A stretch of 64,000 nt of DNA from Frigoriglobus tundricola. GTDB lineage: Bacteria; Planctomycetota; Planctomycetia; Gemmatales; Gemmataceae. Positions 3 to 16,510 of the stretch are shown piece by piece (position 1 is the stretch's first letter; the number at the start of each line of letters is the position of its first letter). The notes beneath the pieces are model-generated. The model searched no databases. It had not been told where the DNA came from and was given only the letters and a program-made list of their open reading frames with translations. The stretch lies in contig NZ_CP053452.2 of NCBI RefSeq assembly GCF_013128195.2, positions 8,370,001 through 8,434,000 on the forward strand. The letters run 5' to 3'. A program made the position numbers and the translations under genes.

Positions 3-443
3 TACAACCTGATGGCCCGCACGCTGCTCGGCACGCGCGTGCGGGACGTGGACTGTGCCCTGAAGGTGTTCCGGCGCGACGTGATCGGCGGGCTGCTTCC
101 GGAGTCGCGCGGGTTCTTCGTGAACACGGAAATGCTGACCCGCGCGCGACAACTCGGCCTGGAGGTCGTTGAGTTGCCCGTGACGCACCGCCCGCGGGCC
201 GCCGGGGCGAGTAAGGTGTCGCTCCGCGAGGTGCCGCGCACCGCCCGCACGCTTCTTACGTTCTGGTGGCGGGAAGTCGTGTGGGGGGCAGCGCCCGCGG
301 TCACTCCGACGGTGCTTCAGGGGCGGGTGGAGGTTCCTGCGCCCACTCCCGAAGCAACTCCTCAACAAGCTCCAATCCCTCTTCCTTCGTCCGCACGCGG
401 CCCTCAAGCTGCGCCTCCCGCACGGCGTCGAGCAGCCGCTTGA
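3..443 (+). CDS. GT2-family glycosyltransferase, C-terminal part (5' end outside window)
   Basis: The reading frame is already open at the window edge, so the start lies upstream. What remains reads like the end of a polyprenyl/dolichyl-phosphate sugar transferase: an RDVDCALKVFRRD stretch, then VNTEMLTRARQLGLEVVELPVTHRPR and a GASKVS segment, which is the usual end of the GT2 catalytic domain in this subfamily. These enzymes transfer sugars to lipid-phosphate carriers at the membrane. The last ~45 residues are Pro/Ala-rich and lie over the end of the convergent cca gene, an overlap of 143 bases, so the tail is probably a late extension. Family assignment is good; the substrate is unknown. 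Confidence 0.8.
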   Translation, partial: YNLMARTLLGTRVRDVDCALKVFRRDVIGGLLPESRGFFVNTEMLTRARQLGLEVVELPVTHRPRAAGASKVSLREVPRTARTLLTFWWREVVWGAAPAVTPTVLQGRVEVPAPTPEATPQQAPIPLPSSARGPQAAPPARRRAAA

Positions 444-1770
444 ACTGCGGACCGGGCTTCAGCCCCACCGCGATCAGGTGTTCGCCGGTGACGGCCGGGG
501 GCGGGTTCAGTTCCTCCGGCGGCATTTCGCGCAGCACGCGCTCGCAGAACTCGACGTGTTCGAGGCTCTTGCCGCTGGCCCGGGCGTCGGCGCGGTGGAG
601 CGCGAGCAGTTCGCCGATCCCGGGGTGAACCAGGATCGGCTTGAGCCGGCTCATCCGCATCGTCGGCGCGTCGGCGAGGTACTGGTGCTTATCGACGAGC
701 CAGCACAGCCGGGCCGTTTCGGTGTTGGACAGCTTCAATCGGTCCGCAATGCGTGAAGTCATCTCCGCGCCGACCCGCTCGTGCCCGTGGAACGTGTAGC
801 GATCGGCGGTGCGCCCGAACACGCGCGGCTTGCCGACGTCGTGCAGCACCGCCGCAAACGCGAGGGGGAAGGAGACGGAGGAAGCGTGGAGCGCGGAGTG
901 CGGAGCGCGGAGTGGAAGACCGAAGAACCCCGTTGGCTCCGGGCCTTCACTCCGCGTTCCGGGTTCCGCGTTCCGCGCTTCTCCGAGGCACTCCATCACG
1001 CGAACGATGTGGTCCCACAGCGTCCCGGTGGGCGCGGCCGGCAGCCCTTGCGGGAGGGTGAAGGTCGGCACCAGTTCCGGCAGAATCGGCCCGATCAGCT
1101 CCAACTCGCGCAGCAGCCGGAGCCCGCGTGCGCGGTTCGGGTGAACGAGCAACTTCCGCAGCTCCTCCGCGATGCGCTCGGCGGACACCACGCGAATCTC
1201 GGGGGCCATCCGCTCCGCGGCGGCGTGGGTGGCCGGGTCGATGGCGAGCGCGAACCGCGTCGCCATGCGGGCGGCGCGGAGGACGCGGAGCTTGTCCTCG
1301 GTGAAGCGCGCGACCGGGTCGCCGATGGCGCGGAGCACCTTCGCGTCGAGGTCGGCGCGGCCGCCGACGTAGTCGATCAGCTCGTTCTTGACCGGGTCGA
1401 AGAACATGCCGTTGACCGTGAAGTCGCGGCGCTTGGCGTCTTCTTCGGGCGTGGAGAACGTGACGGCGTCGGGGCGGCGGCCGTCGATGTACGCGCCGTC
1501 GGTGCGGAACGTGGCGACTTCGACGGTGAGCCACTCGCCGTCGTCGCCGCGCGGGCCGATGACCTGCACCACGCCGAAGTGCGCGCCGATCTCGTTGCGG
1601 CGGCGGAACAGCGGGCGGAGTTGCTCCGGGCGGGCGGACGTGGCGACGTCGTAGTCCTGCGGCGCCAGCCCGAGTAGTTCATCGCGCACACACCCGCCGG
1701 CCCAGAGTGCCGTGTACCCGGCGTTCTGGAGCGTGCGGACCACACCCAATGCGAACTCGCGCTCGGTCAT
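301..1770 (-). CDS. cca: CCA tRNA nucleotidyltransferase / poly(A) polymerase family
   Basis: 489-residue class II nucleotidyltransferase that builds or repairs the CCA end of tRNAs. Visible landmarks are the head-domain GGCVRDELLG motif (residues ~25-34), the catalytic DYDV pair, the RRDFTVNGMFFDP segment, the RVLRAARMATRF neck motif and an HD-type LHDVGKP motif. Length is ordinary for the family. Between the neck/body region and the HD motif there is an odd in-frame insertion, residues about 264-297, encoded by an imperfect palindrome described separately. Start is the ATG at 1770, directly before the conserved N-terminus. The gene is convergent with the glycosyltransferase fragment to its left. 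Confidence 0.93.
   Translation of the reverse strand: MTEREFALGVVRTLQNAGYTALWAGGCVRDELLGLAPQDYDVATSARPEQLRPLFRRRNEIGAHFGVVQVIGPRGDDGEWLTVEVATFRTDGAYIDGRRPDAVTFSTPEEDAKRRDFTVNGMFFDPVKNELIDYVGGRADLDAKVLRAIGDPVARFTEDKLRVLRAARMATRFALAIDPATHAAAERMAPEIRVVSAERIAEELRKLLVHPNRARGLRLLRELELIGPILPELVPTFTLPQGLPAAPTGTLWDHIVRVMECLGEARNAEPGTRSEGPEPTGFFGLPLRAPHSALHASSVSFPLAFAAVLHDVGKPRVFGRTADRYTFHGHERVGAEMTSRIADRLKLSNTETARLCWLVDKHQYLADAPTMRMSRLKPILVHPGIGELLALHRADARASGKSLEHVEFCERVLREMPPEELNPPPAVTGEHLIAVGLKPGPQFKRLLDAVREAQLEGRVRTKEEGLELVEELLREWAQEPPPAPEAPSE
881..981. repeat. Palindromic element inserted in frame inside cca
   Basis: The arms at 881-914 and 948-981 are inverted copies of each other, matching at 28 of 34 positions by eye, around a 33-base centre. 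Both arms are built of GCGGAGTG/GCGGAAC-like units. The element keeps the cca frame open and adds about 34 low-complexity residues that the CCA-enzyme family does not normally have. It behaves like the protein-coding palindromic elements known from Rickettsia, although the sequence is different. Confidence 0.75.
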
Positions 1771-4433: not shown

Positions 4434-5598
4434 TTACCTCGGCAAGGAAGTTGCTCAAGGTGTAACATAAAAGGGGCCTCGTAGTGGCCCCGATCGGTCT
4501 CACCATCGTCCGCTGAGCGGCTGCGTCATGGCGATCACATTGCCGGATTCTCGTGGGCTGTCCGACGAAGTCCTGCAGGCGTTGCGCCTGCGCGCGTTGC
4601 ACGGGATCGAGTCCGGGTTCTCGCAAGCCGATGTGGCCCGGTTGCTGGGTGTCGCGGGTGAAACCGTGTCGCGCTGGTGGACGGCCTACACGGCGGGTGG
4701 GCTGCAGGCCCTGCCCCAGGAGCGCACCGGGCGACCGGTGGGAACCGGGCGCACCCTCTCCGACGAGCAAGGGGCCCACCTGCAACTACTGCTCGACACC
4801 AAGAGCCCGTCGGATCTGGGGATCGCCGCGCCCGTGTGGAACCGTCGCGCGGTTCGCGACCTGATCCTCAACGAGTACGGGCTCCGGGTGCCGATTCGCA
4901 CCGTGGGGGAATACTTGCGGCGCTGGGGCTATACGGCCAAGAAGCCGTCCCGCCACGCCCGCAAGCAAGATCCCGACGAGGTGCGTGAGTGGCTCGAGCA
5001 GACGTATCCGGCCATTGAAAAGCTGGCTCGGGCGGAACGGGCCACCATGTTCTGGTGCGATGAGACCGGGACGGCCGCCGACGCGTATCCCGGTTACGGG
5101 TACGCCCGCGAGGGCCAACGGGCGACGATCGAGGTTCCCGATCCGCACATCCGGATGAACATGGTCTCCGGGATCAGTAACACGGGCGATGTGCGGTTCC
5201 TGACGTATTCCGGCACGATGACGGCCGAGCGGTTCATCACGTTCCTGAAGCAGTTGCTGACGACCGTGCCGGGTACGATCTTCGTGATCGTGGACAACTT
5301 GCCCGCCCACGCCAAGGATGCGGTCGTCGCTTGGGTCCAACAGCATGAGGATCGGCTCGCCGTGTTTTATCTGCCCCGGTACAGTCCCGAATTGAACCCC
5401 GACGAGTATCTCAACAACGACCTGAAGGGGCAGGTGCATGACGCCGGCTTGCCCGACACGAGCAAAACCCTGCGCTCGCGAATCCAACGCTTCATGCACA
5501 AGCTCCTGATGCTACCCAAACATGTGATGAGCTACTTCCTCCATCCAAAAGTAAACTATTGCGCATCAGGTTAATGATAAAATTATTTGCCGGGGTAA
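4434..5598 (+). mobile_element. IS630-family insertion sequence, intact
   Basis: 1165 bp with terminal inverted repeats TTACCTCGGCAA (4434-4445) and TTGCCGGGGTAA (5587-5598), 11 of 12 matching, flanked by TA on both sides (4432-4433 and 5599-5600). TA duplication is the IS630 signature. It is inserted four bases inside the left end of the IS110-type element, so it arrived later. Confidence 0.9.
4528..5574 (+). CDS. IS630-family transposase
   Basis: 348 residues, apparently intact. The N-terminal third carries a helix-turn-helix (SQADVARLLGVAGETVSRWWTAY) and a second winged-helix segment (RTVGEYLRRWGYTAKKP). The catalytic DDE set is visible as WCDETG, then VDNLPAH, then SPELNPDEYLNNDLK. It cuts and pastes the element into TA dinucleotides. 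The gene fills most of the element between the inverted repeats. A GGGGCC-TCGTAGT-GGCCCC hairpin lies upstream, near 4472-4490. Confidence 0.93.
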   Translation: MAITLPDSRGLSDEVLQALRLRALHGIESGFSQADVARLLGVAGETVSRWWTAYTAGGLQALPQERTGRPVGTGRTLSDEQGAHLQLLLDTKSPSDLGIAAPVWNRRAVRDLILNEYGLRVPIRTVGEYLRRWGYTAKKPSRHARKQDPDEVREWLEQTYPAIEKLARAERATMFWCDETGTAADAYPGYGYAREGQRATIEVPDPHIRMNMVSGISNTGDVRFLTYSGTMTAERFITFLKQLLTTVPGTIFVIVDNLPAHAKDAVVAWVQQHEDRLAVFYLPRYSPELNPDEYLNNDLKGQVHDAGLPDTSKTLRSRIQRFMHKLLMLPKHVMSYFLHPKVNYCASG

Positions 5599-5600
5599 TA

Positions 5601-5959
5601 TGAAGCCGCGTACCGGTCAAGTCAAAAAGCCATTTGGTTTCTTCGGTGTTGTCGTGCCCGCACCGGCCCCCGCCCCCGCTGGGCCGCGTGTGGGCACGAC
5701 AACACCCACGACCCGGTTCCCACACCGGATCCCCGTCACTGCGATCATATGCACGCGTGAACCGCACTCGACTATCCGAGGTCACGGGCCTGCGCCCGGC
5801 CCCACCCATCCGAATCCGCCGCGCCGCCCATTCATTCGGCCGAGGTCGGTTCCCCGCCCCGCACAAAGCTCCGAGCTGACGCGGACAGGCCCACGTGTGT
5901 TCGACCGGCTCTCTCGGCTCACTCAGTGACAGCCAATTGTCACTCACCCACTCACCCAC
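5601..5959 (-). ncRNA. Long non-coding end of the IS110-type element; candidate bridge RNA
   Basis: About 360 bases between the transposase stop and the element end have no protein gene. They contain a strong hairpin, GGTGTTGTCGTGCCC with its exact inverse, near 5644-5706, and a GTGACA/TGTCAC hairpin at 5926-5943. IS110-family elements encode a structured guide (bridge) RNA in a non-coding end; in the IS1111 group this is the end downstream of the transposase, which fits here. The RNA itself, its boundaries and strand are inferred from position only. Confidence 0.35.
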
Positions 5960-7030
5960 TCACGCCGGTGCGGCCCCAGGGCCGGAGTTGGGTATCGGGT
6001 CGGCGCGCCACGTCTGACCGGTTCGCAGCATGGCCCAGCACCGCACCAACAGCTTCCGGGCCAGCGCCACGATGGCCGGGTTCTTGCGGCTCACCCCGCC
6101 CCCGGTGAGCCCCGCGTAATGCGCTCTCGCCCACGGGTTGTACCGCAACATGCACCACGCGCACTCCACCAACAGCTTCCGCAGGATCGCCGGGCCGCGC
6201 CGCGTGATCCGCCCCTTGCGGTCTGTAACCCCGCTCTGATACTGGGTCGGCACCGGGCCCGCATACGCCCCCACCTGCTTACCCGACGCGAACCGGTTCG
6301 GATCGACCAGGTGGGCCGCGATCGCCTCGGCCGTGCGGGGCCCCACGCCCGGGATCGAGAGCAACAACTGGGTGCCCGGGTCGGCGGCGCTCAACTGATC
6401 CAGCGCCCGCTCGGCCTCTTTGATCCGGTCCTCCAGATCCCGGTACTGGTCCACGGCCATTCGCAACATCCCGCGCCACAGCTCGTCGGGGCCGCATCCG
6501 GACAGTTCCTTGGCCTGGGCGTCGAGTACGTCCAACCCGTCGGCCGTCCACGCCTTGGCCCCGGTCGGCATGGCGACCGCATGGGTCGCGAACAGGGCCC
6601 GGATGCGGTTCTGGCACGCGACCCGTTGCCCCACCAACTCCTGACGGAACGCGATCAGCAGGCGCCGTTGCCGGGTCGTCGGGTCCGGCAGGGTGACCGT
6701 GGGCAACTGACCGATGGCCTCCAGCTCGGCCAGCCGCTTGGCGTCGTCGTGGTCCGTCTTCCGCTTGAGCCGGGTGAACGTCCACGCCTCGCCGGTCACG
6801 TTGGCCACCTTCACGGTATGCCCGGCCGCGACCGCCCGGTCGTGTACCCACCCGGCGTTGGAGCACGCCTCGATCACCACCGCGGCGCGGGGGTGCTTCG
6901 CCAGGACCTTGGCGAGTTCGTCGGGTGTGGTGTCGATGGTACGGAACGTGTGCGCACGGGTGGTGCGGGTGTATGCGCACACCACGCTCTTGTAACGCCC
7001 CAGGTCGATCGCAATAATCGTGTCGGACAT
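5960..7030 (-). CDS. IS110-family (DEDD) transposase/recombinase
   Basis: 356 residues with the two parts of the family. The N-terminal RuvC-like DEDD domain shows IAIDLGRYKS, VVIEACSNAGW and RKTDHDDAKRLAEL. The C-terminal transposase domain shows SIPGVGPRTAEAIAAHL, then GAYAGPVPTQYQSG and RKGRITRRGPAILRKLLVECAW, containing the expected serine region. No frameshift is seen. The ATG at 7030 is close to the element's right end. The enzyme works with a guide RNA to choose its target, which would explain insertion into a repeated site. Confidence 0.9.
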   Translation of the reverse strand: MSDTIIAIDLGRYKSVVCAYTRTTRAHTFRTIDTTPDELAKVLAKHPRAAVVIEACSNAGWVHDRAVAAGHTVKVANVTGEAWTFTRLKRKTDHDDAKRLAELEAIGQLPTVTLPDPTTRQRRLLIAFRQELVGQRVACQNRIRALFATHAVAMPTGAKAWTADGLDVLDAQAKELSGCGPDELWRGMLRMAVDQYRDLEDRIKEAERALDQLSAADPGTQLLLSIPGVGPRTAEAIAAHLVDPNRFASGKQVGAYAGPVPTQYQSGVTDRKGRITRRGPAILRKLLVECAWCMLRYNPWARAHYAGLTGGGVSRKNPAIVALARKLLVRCWAMLRTGQTWRADPIPNSGPGAAPA

Positions 7031-13728: not shown

Positions 13729-14383
13729 CCCGCCGCCCTGGCGAGCGGGGTTCGCCCGTGCCGTTGGTGTCGGCCGCAGTCGAGCGTGAATACGCACACG
13801 CGGGCCGATGGCGCCTCCGCCCTGTGCTCCGGGCATCTCGTCCCCAAACCATCTCGTCCCCACGCGACCCAGGGGCGGAACGAGGTCGGCCCGGGCGACG
13901 TGCTGGCGAGTGGGAGAGGAAGGTCACCGCACCGAACGGGCTGGCCTGATTTGTAAATCGTTATTCAGATTCGATTTATGGAGAGTATCGGCCGGTTCTG
14001 TTCGGTCGTGTCGCTGTCAACCATCGCGACCAGCCCCGTTCGGGTGGCCGACTGTCTCCGACGGTCGCGGTGGCACCTCCGATGGCGTGATACGGTACTC
14101 GAAACGACCGTTGCGCGCCGTCGCGGTCTGCTGTCGGCGACCGCGCCCCACCCGAGAACAACGACAGACGATGAAAACGGAAGAAGAGGTCGCTGATTGC
14201 CCGGAGTTAAGCCAGGCGGGCGAGAAGTACCGGTTCTCACTCCGCCGGCCGGCCGGCGCAAAAAAGCGCCCCGGACGAGCTTTCGCCGGCTCGCCGGGGC
14301 TTGGTGTAACACGGTGTTACCCGTATCACGTGCCGTCTCAGGGAGTACCCACAGTTTCCGGTCGCCGGCGTTCAACCTCTTCA
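13729..14383. other. Interval without a supported gene
   Basis: Open frames here look random. Contents seen are palindromic repeat copy D, a perfect 15-bp palindrome GTAACACGGTGTTAC at 14306-14320, and the sequence trailing the permuted tRNA-like unit, including CGTGCCG near 14330, whose complement occurs in that unit's leader at 14494-14500. Confidence 0.5.
13833..13886 (-). repeat. Dispersed palindromic repeat, copy D (inverted, diverged)
   Basis: CATCTCGTCCCC, then CCATCTCGTCCCCACGCGAC, then CCAGGGGCGGAACGAGG. Same orientation as copy C, so C and D bracket the cassette-like array. Confidence 0.75.
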
Positions 14384-14463
14384 CCAACCGCCTTACCGTT
14401 AGGCGACCCCCGCGTGGGTTTGGGCGAAGCGCGGGGGAATGGATTCGAACCACTATGTGTTGG
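14384..14463 (-). tRNA. Circularly permuted tRNA-like gene (3' half before 5' half), unit 2
   Basis: Read on the minus strand from 14463: anticodon-stem 3' side CCAAC, variable ACAT, T-stem AGTGG, T-loop TTCGAAT, T-stem CCATT, acceptor CCCCCGC (ending 14431). Then a 17-base linker (14430-14414), then the 5' half from 14413: acceptor GCGGGGG, TC, D-stem GCC, loop TAACGGTAA, GGC, G, anticodon-stem GTTGG (ending 14384). Put in normal order, acceptor (7/7), D (3/3), anticodon (5/5) and T (5/5) stems all pair and the loops are canonical. The anticodon loop is split between flanks reading GCTCCAG before and TGAAGAG after the unit. TCC (Gly) is possible, but U33 is not assured. No CCA is encoded. 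Confidence 0.72.
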
Positions 14464-14538
14464 CTGGAGCCGGTCGTTCGATTGGGCACCTCGGCACGGT
14501 ACTGATGCTCGGCGTGACAATCTGATTCTGCGTGCGGG

Positions 14539-14606
14539 ACACCTGCCTCTACCGATTGGGCTATCCCGCCGGGGTCGAGAGTGGCGGGAGCAGGGCTCGA
14601 ACCTGC
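14539..14606 (-). tRNA. Circularly permuted tRNA-like gene, unit 1 (less complete)
   Basis: Minus strand from 14606: T-stem GCAGG, T-loop TTCGAGC, T-stem CCTGC, acceptor TCCCGCC (ending 14583), a linker of 12 bases starting with discriminator A, then from 14570 acceptor GGCGGGA, TA, D-stem GCC, loop CAATCGGTAGA, GGC, A, and GGTGT at 14543-14539. Acceptor 7/7, T-stem 5/5 and D-stem 3/3 pair. The anticodon stem is poor: GGTGT against GTGCC needs three wobbles, although CCCGC and GCGGG just outside could extend the helix. No anticodon can be named. Neither half has a partner on its other side. Confidence 0.55.
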
Positions 14607-14693
14607 ACTGGGGGCACCCGCGGTTCAGCCGGAGCCTGATGCTCAGCCTGCACGCCTGTGCGTAAGACATGATGCCGCATGCGGCCCGGAGGT

Positions 14694-16510
14694 TCAACCT
14701 TTGGCCGGCTTTTTCTCCTCGGGGTCCTTCACCTCGCTCGCCCTGAAGTCCACCCCGACGACCGCCGTTACCGGGACCTCCTTGCCGCGGAACTTGACCG
14801 GCGCCCGGCGGATCTGCACCCGCCACTGCAGCGCGTCCGGCGAGTCCTCGGCGGCGCGGATCAGCTTCTGGGCCTGTGAGTTGTAGTCGGTGAAGACCAC
14901 GTAATCGCGGGTCTCGCCGGGGCCGAGTGGCGTGTAATCGTTCGCCTGCTGCTGCTCGTACTGCTTCCGCACCGCCGCTCCCGGTGGCCAGGTGAGTGCT
15001 CCGCCCGGAAGGATCGTCGTCTTGTTCACCACCAGCCGCGTGATCGGCCGGTCGTCCCCGACGCTCCGCCGGGTGAACGCCGGGTCCATCGGGTAAATGC
15101 TCTGGTCGAAGTTGTTCTTCACCCGGAGGGTGAGAACGAGTGCGGCCGTCCGGGTGGCTTCGGTCCGGGGCTCGCCCTTCACCGGCTCGGTAACGACCGC
15201 CAAGCGGCGCTTCTCGACGCGGAGCGGGTGAACCTCCATCTGGCCGACCGTGATCTTCCCGCCCAGGCCGGCCCGCTGGTCGGGCGGGAGTTCGCCGTCC
15301 ACGGGGAACCGGTACAGCGCGACCTTCTTGCGCGTCGCCGGGTCGAACTCGCCGAAGTTGTCCGGGATCGTGGAGAGCGGGTGGCCGGGTTCGAGCTTTT
15401 CGCCGGCCTTGAAGAACAGCCCGTACAGCGCAACAGCGGTCGCCAGGAGCGCGTAAACGCTGACCGCAATCAGAGCGGTGGGGAGCTTCCCCTTCTCGGT
15501 TCCGAGCGGGGCGGGGGTCAATTTACTCGCCGGCTTCTCTTCGGACGCATCCGGCGCGCTGTCGCGCTTCTTCCGTTTGCGCGGGGGCTCCTCCGCGGGC
15601 AAGTCTGCGTGAACGGGTGCGGCCGGTTGTTGGCTCTCGGTCACCGCCGCCGGGGGCGCTTGGGTCGTCGCGAAGTCGGCGAACGGGTCACTGGCTGGCG
15701 CGGGGGCCGGCTCGACCGGCGCCGGCCGCGGAGCCGCGATCGGTTGCGACCCGGCCGGGAACAGCACGGGCACCTGGAGCGGTGAAGGGGCCGGCTGGGG
15801 GGCGGGCGGCTCGGGCTGTCGGGCGGCCGGTCCCGGGCTGGTGAACGGGTTCGTCGAACGGACCGCGGGTTCGGGGGCCGCGGGTTCGGGGGCCGCGGGT
15901 CGCGCGGGCGCCGGCGGCGCGACCGCCCGGACCTGAGCGCGCGCGCGGGCGCACTCAGGTCGGCAAAGGGGTTGTCCGGGGGCGGATCGGGCGCCGGGCT
16001 CGGTGCCGGGGCGGGTGGGCGCGCCGGGTTCGGGTCCGAAGGTGCGAACGCGAGCGGGTTCGCCGGTGCCGGTTCGGGCGCCACGGGCGGGGTCGTTGTC
16101 GCCGGCATGGTGGGCGGCGCGCTGACCGTCATCGTCGGGGGAACGAAGTCCGGTGCGACAATGGCGGGCCGCTTGCTCCCGCGGGAGCCGAACACTTCGT
16201 CTTCGGACTCGTCCGGTTCGCTCAAAATGCTGTCCGCCCCCTCTTTTCGCGCGGGCGTCTTGAACACCGGCAGGTCACTTTCCAGCGGGGGCGGGGCCGG
16301 CGCCTTCGTAACCAGGGTGGGCGGGGCGTCGGACTTGGGGGTCGGGAGCGGCGCGGGCGCGGCGGGCGTGGCCGACGGGCCGACGGTGGACGGCGCCAGC
16401 AGCACCTGTTTGCAGTGCGGGCACCGGACCTGCTTGCCGAGCAACTCGGCGGACACGCCCATGCGGCGGCCGCAGAACGGACACGGGAACGTGACAGGTG
16501 GTGAGGCCAT
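14694..16510 (-). pseudogene. Zinc-ribbon/membrane protein, frame broken in a GC repeat
   Basis: The N-terminal part begins MASPPVTFPCPFCGRRMG...LGKQVRCPHCKQVL, a CxxC...CxxC zinc ribbon, then a long Pro/Ala-rich linker with NPFADL and NPFTSP motifs. At about 15932-15945 lies a GCGCGCGCGC run, and the sensible reading moves to the next frame. The second part has one membrane segment (ALIAVSVYALLATAVALYGLFF) and a ~230-residue extracytoplasmic-type domain ending at 14694. Together they would make a ~600-residue protein of unknown role. A start at 16510 is chosen over 16552 because the zinc ribbon follows directly. Confidence 0.65.

What the first reader, a model, noticed from the sequence alone, without database searches (positions are those of the whole stretch)
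14384..14463. Circularly permuted tRNA-like gene with complete stem pairing
On the minus strand a tRNA 3' half (anticodon-stem CCAAC, T-arm, acceptor CCCCCGC) comes before its own 5' half (acceptor GCGGGGG, D-arm, anticodon-stem GTTGG), separated by 17 bases. All four stems pair perfectly (7, 3, 5 and 5 bp), the T-loop and D-loop are canonical, and no normal partner half exists on either outer side. Permuted tRNA genes are known in some algae and archaea; I know of none in bacteria, although permuted tmRNA genes are. The flanks can pair further (CGTGCCG at 14494-14500, on the minus strand, with CGGCACG near 14330). How a bacterium would join the anticodon loop is unclear: U33 is not obviously supplied by either half. 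It may therefore be a functional precursor needing special processing, or a relic.
Basis: partly seen in the sequence, partly recalled or inferred. Interest (0 to 1): 0.9.

Follow-up and report, generated by a model that had tools for sequence, protein, structure and literature searches.

The report
Twin tRNA-mimic RNA paired with DUF7873
The oddity is one half of a conserved ~400-base RNA that carries two tRNA bodies built "inside out" and travels with one uncharacterised protein through bacteria and their viruses; it seems to mimic tRNA rather than make one, and it looks like a new RNA class.

Summary
A permuted-tRNA scan finds exactly these two units in the 64-kb window; 60 dinucleotide shuffles average 0.017. 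The layout is conserved in 13 genomes of the genus, with covariation.

It is not an ordinary tRNA gene: no anticodon loop is supplied, and each "anticodon" end runs into an RNA core. Of 59 genomes searched (own included), 16 hold the full-length RNA, and exactly those 16 carry DUF7873 (PF25283). The RNA lies near DUF7873 in 12 of 12 phage or plasmid regions examined and 78 of 80 viral-contig loci, nearly always just downstream. No Rfam family matches it at gathering score.

The closest known RNA is YrlA, a Ro60-bound Y RNA with one such domain. This RNA fails YrlA membership: below threshold, two domains, and present in six genomes where no Ro60-type protein was detected.

Best reading: a new RNP-type tRNA mimic with DUF7873 as partner. 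Its function is unproven.

The parts
14260..14661 (-). Whole predicted RNA, about 400 nt, from the conserved 5' block GCACAGGCGTG to the end of the terminator T-run
   Evidence: 13-genome alignment; ends inferred, no transcript data
14651..14656 (-). Closing helix of domain A, 5' strand GGCGTG
   Evidence: pairs with 14511-14516, invariant in 13 genomes
14511..14516 (-). Closing helix of domain A, 3' strand CACGCC
14590..14606 (-). Domain A T-arm GCAGG-TTCGAGC-CCTGC
14583..14589 (-). Domain A acceptor 3' strand TCCCGCC
   Evidence: covaries with 14564-14570
14564..14570 (-). Domain A acceptor 5' strand GGCGGGA
14545..14561 (-). Domain A D-arm GCCCAATCGGTAGAGGC
14492..14497 (-). Closing helix of domain B, 5' strand GTGCCG
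14330..14335 (-). Closing helix of domain B, 3' strand CGGCAC
14459..14463 (-). Domain B anticodon-stem 3' strand CCAAC
   Evidence: covaries with 14384-14388 (helix 4)
14438..14454 (-). Domain B T-arm AGTGG-TTCGAAT-CCATT
   Evidence: helix 5
14431..14437 (-). Domain B acceptor 3' strand CCCCCGC
   Evidence: helix 6
14414..14430 (-). Domain B linker joining the two acceptor strands (17 nt)
14407..14413 (-). Domain B acceptor 5' strand GCGGGGG
   Evidence: helix 6
14390..14404 (-). Domain B D-arm GCCT-AACGGTA-AGGC
   Evidence: helix 7
14384..14388 (-). Domain B anticodon-stem 5' strand GTTGG
   Evidence: helix 4
14260..14300 (-). Terminator-like GC hairpin and T-run
   Evidence: seen by eye and conserved in the alignment; the terminator scan did not list it
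14669..14697 (-). Promoter-like TTGAAC, 17 nt, CATCAT
   Evidence: seen by eye, conserved in most aligned genomes; not found by the promoter scan

Best explanation
The feature is half of a structured non-coding RNA of about 400 nt with two tRNA-like domains. Each domain is a tRNA body (acceptor stem, T-arm, D-arm, and in B a clear anticodon stem) grafted by its anticodon end onto a conserved RNA core, so that the acceptor ends are joined by a loop and the tRNA looks circularly permuted in the gene. The RNA works in trans with the DUF7873 protein. Shown here: the architecture, its conservation and covariation, the exact co-occurrence with DUF7873 in 59 genomes, and nearness to that gene in phages and other bacteria. 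Inferred: that RNA and protein form one particle, and that the tRNA bodies act by mimicry, recruiting or occupying tRNA-binding proteins, much as the single tRNA-like domain of YrlA does in the Ro60 particle. It is not a source of decoding tRNA.
For: Two units where none is expected by chance. Covariation: domain B 97.9% of cells paired against 88.1% in shuffles and at most 44.2% when slid; 55 doubly changed cells against 17.2, 0 of 500 shuffles. Domain A 99.7% paired against 94.3%, 27 doubly changed cells against 10.1, 0 of 500. A sequence-only alignment of 40 diverse members folds the same way with many pair types. Co-occurrence: full-length R2 matches of 87.6 bits or more in 16 of 59 genomes, next best genome 54.1; DUF7873 in the same 16 of 59 and no other; within the genus 13 of 19 have both and 6 neither. 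The RNA lies within about 0.6 kb downstream of DUF7873 in 8 of the 16 and elsewhere in 8, so it is not merely a 3' UTR (coordinates). Independent sampling: 12 of 12 phage or plasmid regions examined, of 77 found; 78 of 80 viral-contig loci, of 425 found, or 71 of 72 clusters at 95% identity. Permuted units downstream of the gene in 72 of 80 loci, upstream in 12 of 80, in 5 of 400 shuffles.
Against: No transcript, binding or phenotype data. DUF7873 (model pLDDT 93.4) has no convincing fold match, so RNA binding is unproven. The G004 copy of DUF7873 has one internal stop and the G013 copy is split into two matches, yet both genomes keep the RNA. Two near-identical viral loci (L238, L239) show no RNA within 3 kb. 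Co-occurrence is not corrected for shared ancestry. For domain A the number of pairs with a double change (5) is no higher than in shuffles (245 of 500 reach it) and its further pair types (8) are fewer than in shuffles (mean 11.2). In the regex scan only 51 of 80 loci give two units or more, and a Rhizobium phage member seems by eye to have only unit B tRNA-like. RNA start and end are inferred; the promoter scan found nothing.
Confidence: 0.82

Rival explanations
1. It is a divergent pair of YrlA Y RNAs whose partner is a Ro60-type protein; DUF7873 is an accessory.
For: Domain A aligns to the YrlA model end to end at 19.9 bits, E 0.27, orthologues up to 30.8 bits; YrlA-like RNAs stand next to TROVE genes in the same family; the own genome has a divergent Ro60-fold protein beside another YrlA-like pair.
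Against: No TROVE match in the own genome; 6 of the 16 RNA carriers (G001, G004, G006, G011, G018, G050; G018 is only 65% complete) have neither TROVE nor the divergent protein; scores far below the 69-bit threshold; DUF7873, not Ro60, tracks the RNA.
Confidence: 0.08
2. DUF7873 and the RNA form a toxin-antitoxin-like or phage conflict pair in which the RNA neutralises the protein.
For: Gene and RNA are neighbours in mobile elements, phages and chromosomes and absent or present together in 59 genomes.
Against: In 8 of 16 genomes the two are unlinked; no weighty match to a defence model (one at E 0.014); no toxin fold recognised.
Confidence: 0.08
3. It is a leader or attenuator of the downstream CCA tRNA nucleotidyltransferase gene, with the tRNA bodies sensing that enzyme.
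For: In 7 of 14 relative loci a homologue of that gene follows the RNA on the same strand, and in several the start codon follows the T-run by roughly 8-20 nt (by eye).
Against: In the other 7 of 14 it does not; in the window it is 12.5 kb away; phage members are followed by other genes.
Confidence: 0.05
4. It is a true circularly permuted tRNA gene, processed to a decoding tRNA.
For: Rotated halves with a supplied loop score as a tRNA; many phage members encode NCCA after the acceptor strand (20 of 51).
Against: No anticodon loop in either half; anticodon ends run into conserved core; 88 ordinary tRNA-model matches in the genome; no BHB seen by eye.
Confidence: 0.03

Closest known systems
YrlA, bacterial Y RNA bound by Rsr/Ro60 (Rfam RF02553)
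   Same: A tRNA-like module in permuted order (T-arm, acceptor hairpin, D-arm) whose anticodon end joins another RNA stem; an RNA that works with a protein (PMC8394870 and PMC7790460, passages; alignment).
   Different: Two domains instead of one, about 400 nt instead of 90-150 nt, a different core, DUF7873 instead of Ro60 as the protein that tracks it, and scores far below the family threshold.
Circularly permuted tRNA genes of algae and Thermofilum (PMC3978253, passages)
   Same: The 3' half precedes the 5' half in the gene.
   Different: No anticodon loop, no BHB seen, the tRNA body appears to stay part of a larger RNA, found in bacteria and phages.
Permuted (two-piece) tmRNA (recalled)
   Same: Acceptor ends face each other across an intervening segment; RNA with a tRNA domain.
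   Different: A proper D-arm, two tRNA domains, no Rfam tmRNA match on this RNA at gathering score; a tag reading frame was not sought.
Large phage-associated RNAs such as GOLLD, ROOL, HEARO (from search listings and recall)
   Same: Long structured RNAs found in phages.
   Different: No gathering-score match of these on this RNA; HEARO matched only elsewhere in one phage locus.

Membership tests
YrlA (RF02553) | Score at or above the Rfam gathering threshold (69 bits) | tested here: not met
   window best 19.9 bits; best orthologue 30.8
YrlA (RF02553) | Permuted tRNA-like domain: T-arm, acceptor hairpin, D-arm | tested here: met
YrlA (RF02553) | Ro60/Rsr partner encoded wherever the RNA occurs | tested here: not met
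   no TROVE match in the own genome; 6 of 16 carriers show neither TROVE nor the divergent Ro60-fold protein
YrlA (RF02553) | Basal stem with Ro-binding motif | tested here: inconclusive
   a closing helix with an asymmetric internal loop exists; the binding motif itself is recalled and was not tested
Circularly permuted tRNA gene | 3' half precedes 5' half | tested here: met
Circularly permuted tRNA gene | Halves supply an anticodon loop when joined | tested here: not met
   anticodon-stem ends continue into core sequence without a 7-nt loop
Circularly permuted tRNA gene | BHB motif at the junction | tested here: inconclusive
   none seen by eye; no BHB program was run
Circularly permuted tRNA gene | Splicing endonuclease and circular intermediate | not tested
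   gene not searched; the intermediate needs RNA data
tmRNA | Match to Rfam tmRNA models | tested here: not met
   none on this RNA at gathering score
DUF7873-linked twin tRNA-like RNA (class proposed here) | Two permuted tRNA-like domains in tandem with conserved core | tested here: met
DUF7873-linked twin tRNA-like RNA (class proposed here) | DUF7873 encoded in the same genome | tested here: met
   G000:C1:9120553-9121323, unlinked to the window RNA

The most novel reading that the evidence does not exclude
A previously undescribed ribonucleoprotein, spread between bacteria and phages, in which DUF7873 holds an RNA that presents two tRNA bodies side by side. It could dock on a machine with two tRNA sites (the ribosome, or paired tRNA-processing enzymes), or shield phage and host tRNAs as a double decoy against tRNA-cutting defences. 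Acceptor ends that encode NCCA in many members would let RNase P and the CCA-adding enzyme open, complete and perhaps charge them.
Probability: 0.35. Interest if true: 0.95.

Novelty: categorically new. Interest (0 to 1): 0.88.

Why it matters
It would be a structured RNA class absent from Rfam 15, tied to a protein family of unknown function (PF25283) whose predicted fold has no convincing match in the PDB. The tRNA body is used twice in one RNA. Members were seen in planctomycetes, actinobacterial plasmid records, and phages of actinobacteria, cyanobacteria, Rhizobium and Klebsiella, several of them inside phage tRNA arrays. It gives DUF7873 a concrete, testable role (an RNA partner) and opens the question of what needs two tRNA mimics at once. 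tRNA gene finders miss it because the tRNA is permuted. It is marked categorically new because the YrlA membership test fails; if it proves to descend from YrlA it would be a new variant of that kind.

Tried and rejected
A YrlA/Ro60 assignment was my first working model. It fell because the own genome has no TROVE match and because six carriers show no Ro60-type protein. The other YrlA-like pair of the own genome (L052:3019-3288) does lie beside a divergent Ro60-fold gene; it is a different RNA.

A permuted group I intron-exon arrangement was considered from memory; no intron family appeared at gathering score in the window or up to E 5 in the 1.1-kb region, and the spacers are short.

A cca-gene attenuator was considered; an antiterminator pairing looked possible in one genome by eye but not in others, and I computed no test.

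The promoter scan found nothing and the terminator scan did not list the terminator on this strand. For DUF7873: no PHROG except one at E 0.0018 of unknown function for the Rhizobium phage protein, one PADLOC match at E 0.014, no NCBIfam match, no PDB sequence match better than E 0.11, no Foldseek match at E <= 0.001, VIA-align rows up to Z 7.2 (TolC), read as a shared long-helix arrangement. The miRNA-family hits (E down to 8e-5, all below gathering score) are read as inverted-repeat chance. Short model matches inside tRNA arrays (in L090, L096, L138 and G000:C1:2861670) were read as artefacts. The DNA search also listed G035 (31 bases) and G058 (40 bases); model R2 finds nothing there, so I do not count them.

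Literature: DUF7873 has no paper in the held library. Searches for permuted tRNA, YrlA, Y RNA, tRNA-like structured RNA, tRNA mimic, GOLLD/ROOL and Ro60 (listings) show nothing that I recognise as this RNA; most subscription papers are not held. Read as passages only: PMC7790460, PMC8394870, PMC10085705, PMC7824862, PMC3978253. PMC7824862 mentions TROVE with a tRNA-like partner in jumbo phages, not this RNA.

Full report
CHECK. The sequence at 14384-14463 (minus strand) is as described: a tRNA 3' half followed, after 17 nt, by its own 5' half. Stems are 7, 4, 5 and 5 bp. ARAGORN reports no tRNA in the window and no Rfam family reaches its threshold there. A simple scan for a permuted unit (T-arm, acceptor, linker, acceptor, D-arm) finds exactly two units on both strands of 64 kb, at 14454 and at 14606; 60 dinucleotide shuffles average 0.017 units and never reach two. 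Rotated, with an arbitrary loop and CCA that I supplied, unit B is called a tRNA; none of 200 within-half shuffles is.

ANATOMY. A conserved 5' block begins near 14661 and a terminator-like hairpin with six T ends at 14260, so I infer one RNA of about 400 nt. A promoter-like TTGAAC-17-CATCAT precedes it, but the promoter scan did not find it, and the terminator scan did not list the hairpin. No transcript data were available.

CONSERVATION. A DNA search lists 17 of 59 genomes, own included; two of these (G035, G058) are matches of 31 and 40 bases that I do not count. Thirteen genomes of the genus align over both units, core and terminator. RNAalifold, unconstrained, returns the permuted cloverleaf within its closing helix for B (44 pairs, 15 with double compensation), and acceptor, T- and D-arms within a closing helix for A (28 pairs, 5 with double compensation). 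With controls: B 97.9% of cells paired, 55 doubly changed cells against 17.2 in shuffles (0 of 500), slid versions at most 44.2% paired; A 99.7% paired, 27 doubly changed cells against 10.1 (0 of 500). For A, the number of pairs with a double change (5) is reached by 245 of 500 shuffles and its further pair types (8) are fewer than the shuffle mean (11.2), so its support rests on paired cells and covariation score. The tRNA bodies differ between genomes while the core stays alike; in phages L233 and L235 unit A has a D-arm like that of tRNA-Leu (my reading; the likeness is recalled).

FIRST HYPOTHESIS. A relaxed Rfam scan aligned unit A to YrlA at 19.9 bits, E 0.27; orthologues reach 30.8 bits. 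YrlA-like RNAs do occur beside TROVE genes in this family (L053 68.1 bits, L054 60.4). The own genome has no TROVE match. It has another YrlA-like pair next to a 541-aa protein (L052) whose family profile matches Ro60 in the PDB (E 1.6e-6) and whose model (of the homologue L079, pLDDT 84.9) has Ro60 and Rsr as best Foldseek hits (best E 1.6e-12, TM about 0.55-0.64). But six genomes with the window RNA (G001, G004, G006, G011, G018, G050; G018 only 65% complete) show neither protein (the first five). Ro60 is therefore not the constant partner.

THE PARTNER. The gene directly upstream of the RNA in 7 of 15 loci compared encodes DUF7873 (PF25283, E 4.9e-94 and 1.7e-102 for the two tested). Searched in all 59 genomes, own included, it is present in 16. 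A covariance model built from diverse members (R2) gives a full-length match of 87.6 bits or more in exactly the same 16 genomes; the next best genome has 54.1 bits, a YrlA-like RNA beside a TROVE gene (run with stricter filters that can lose weak matches). Within the genus 13 of 19 have both and 6 have neither; identical sets would arise once in 27132 if genomes were independent, which they are not. In 8 of the 16 the RNA lies within about 0.6 kb downstream of DUF7873; in the other 8, own genome included, it is elsewhere, which argues that the RNA acts in trans. Against: the G004 copy has one internal stop and the G013 copy is split into two matches.

BEYOND PLANCTOMYCETES. DUF7873 matches 73 phage records and 4 plasmid records. 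I fetched 12 of these 77: the 4 plasmid records and 8 phages, chosen for variety. All 12 hold the RNA by model R1 or R2 (R1 alone, at E <= 1, missed two of the 12, L234 and L235): Streptomyces, Nonomuraea, and phages of Gordonia, Rhodococcus, Arthrobacter, Pseudanabaena, Rhizobium, Klebsiella and Microcoleus. In 11 of 12 the match starts within 0.4 kb downstream of the gene (in Gordonia phage Ziko small annotated CDS lie between and across it); in the Microcoleus phage it is about 1.8 kb downstream. In viral contigs 425 relatives were found and the best 80 kept: 78 of 80 have a match at E <= 0.001, 77 of them on the strand of the gene and starting within about 0.8 kb downstream (my reading of the table), L296 on the other strand, none in the near-identical L238 and L239. 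At 95% identity these are 72 clusters, one without RNA. The sequence scan finds at least one permuted unit downstream in 72 of 80, at least two in 51 of 80, upstream in 12 of 80 (several loci have real tRNAs there; ARAGORN was run on 40 of the 80) and in 5 of 400 mononucleotide shuffles. Forty diverse members aligned by sequence alone give a common fold: helix P1, tRNA-like A, helix P2 with conserved AUCGA and UUAAACG, a covarying helix P3, tRNA-like B. At gathering threshold 16 such loci give only tRNA, tmRNA, tRNA-Sec and HEARO matches, none on this RNA.

MECHANISM. Shown: a conserved RNA with two tRNA bodies grafted by their anticodon ends to a common core, tied to DUF7873 by co-occurrence and nearness. 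Inferred: an RNP in which the tRNA bodies bind tRNA-handling proteins. YrlA is the precedent: its tRNA-like domain is a substrate of tRNA-modifying enzymes and binds PNPase in the Ro60 particle (PMC8394870, passages), and it has been suggested as a competitive inhibitor of an anticodon nuclease (PMC7790460, passages). In 20 of 51 loci with two or more units the first acceptor strand is followed by NCCA, which would permit opening by RNase P and CCA completion; in many members the linker is only 6-10 nt and may simply be a hairpin loop. In the window no CCA follows. DUF7873 is predicted with high confidence (pLDDT 93.4) but matches no known fold convincingly.

NEIGHBOURHOOD. In 7 of 14 relative loci the gene downstream of the RNA is a homologue of CCA tRNA nucleotidyltransferase (Pfam run on one of them and on the window's own gene). 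In the window that gene lies at 301-1770, 12.5 kb away, with transposase-like ORFs between (read by eye). A regulatory role there is possible but cannot be the general function, since other genes follow the RNA elsewhere.

VERDICT. Real, conserved, not an ordinary tRNA gene, and most likely an undescribed RNA class with a protein partner of unknown function. The novelty claim rests on Rfam 15 and on the literature searches named; most subscription papers are not held, so a description there could have been missed.

Noticed in passing
L052:872-2497 (minus) = G000:C1:7703374-7704996; homologues L079-L158: A family of Ro60-fold vWA proteins that Pfam TROVE misses, found in planctomycetes, cyanobacteria, Sulfidibacter and others, with permuted tRNA-like RNA matches upstream in many of the 48 loci scanned; some of those matches lie in tRNA arrays.
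   Followed up: partly
L057:1957-2031 and L058:2719-2793: ARAGORN calls ordinary tRNAs (Gly, Asn) that overlap YrlA-like matches: tandem permuted units can be misread as normal tRNA genes.
   Followed up: no
L229:2072-2600 (Gordonia phage Phendrix): A tmRNA match (89 bits) inside the phage tRNA array near DUF7873; no tmRNA is among the annotated features of that stretch.
   Followed up: no
window 301-1770 and 4528-7030: CCA nucleotidyltransferase gene separated from the RNA by 12.5 kb that includes transposase-like ORFs; in 7 of 14 relative loci the homologue follows the RNA.
   Followed up: partly
G000:C1:2860519-2862788 and 3076771-3077724: Two clusters of tRNA-model matches in the own chromosome; neighbouring tRNAs in the first give false permuted-tRNA matches.
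   Followed up: no
L234:4762-5217 (Rhizobium phage RHph_TM21B): A member in which, by eye, only unit B is tRNA-like; unit A seems replaced by a plain hairpin.
   Followed up: no
L235:5013-5096 (Klebsiella phage Centimanus): The record annotates a tRNA-Stop(tta) across part of the twin RNA, probably a misreading of it.
   Followed up: no
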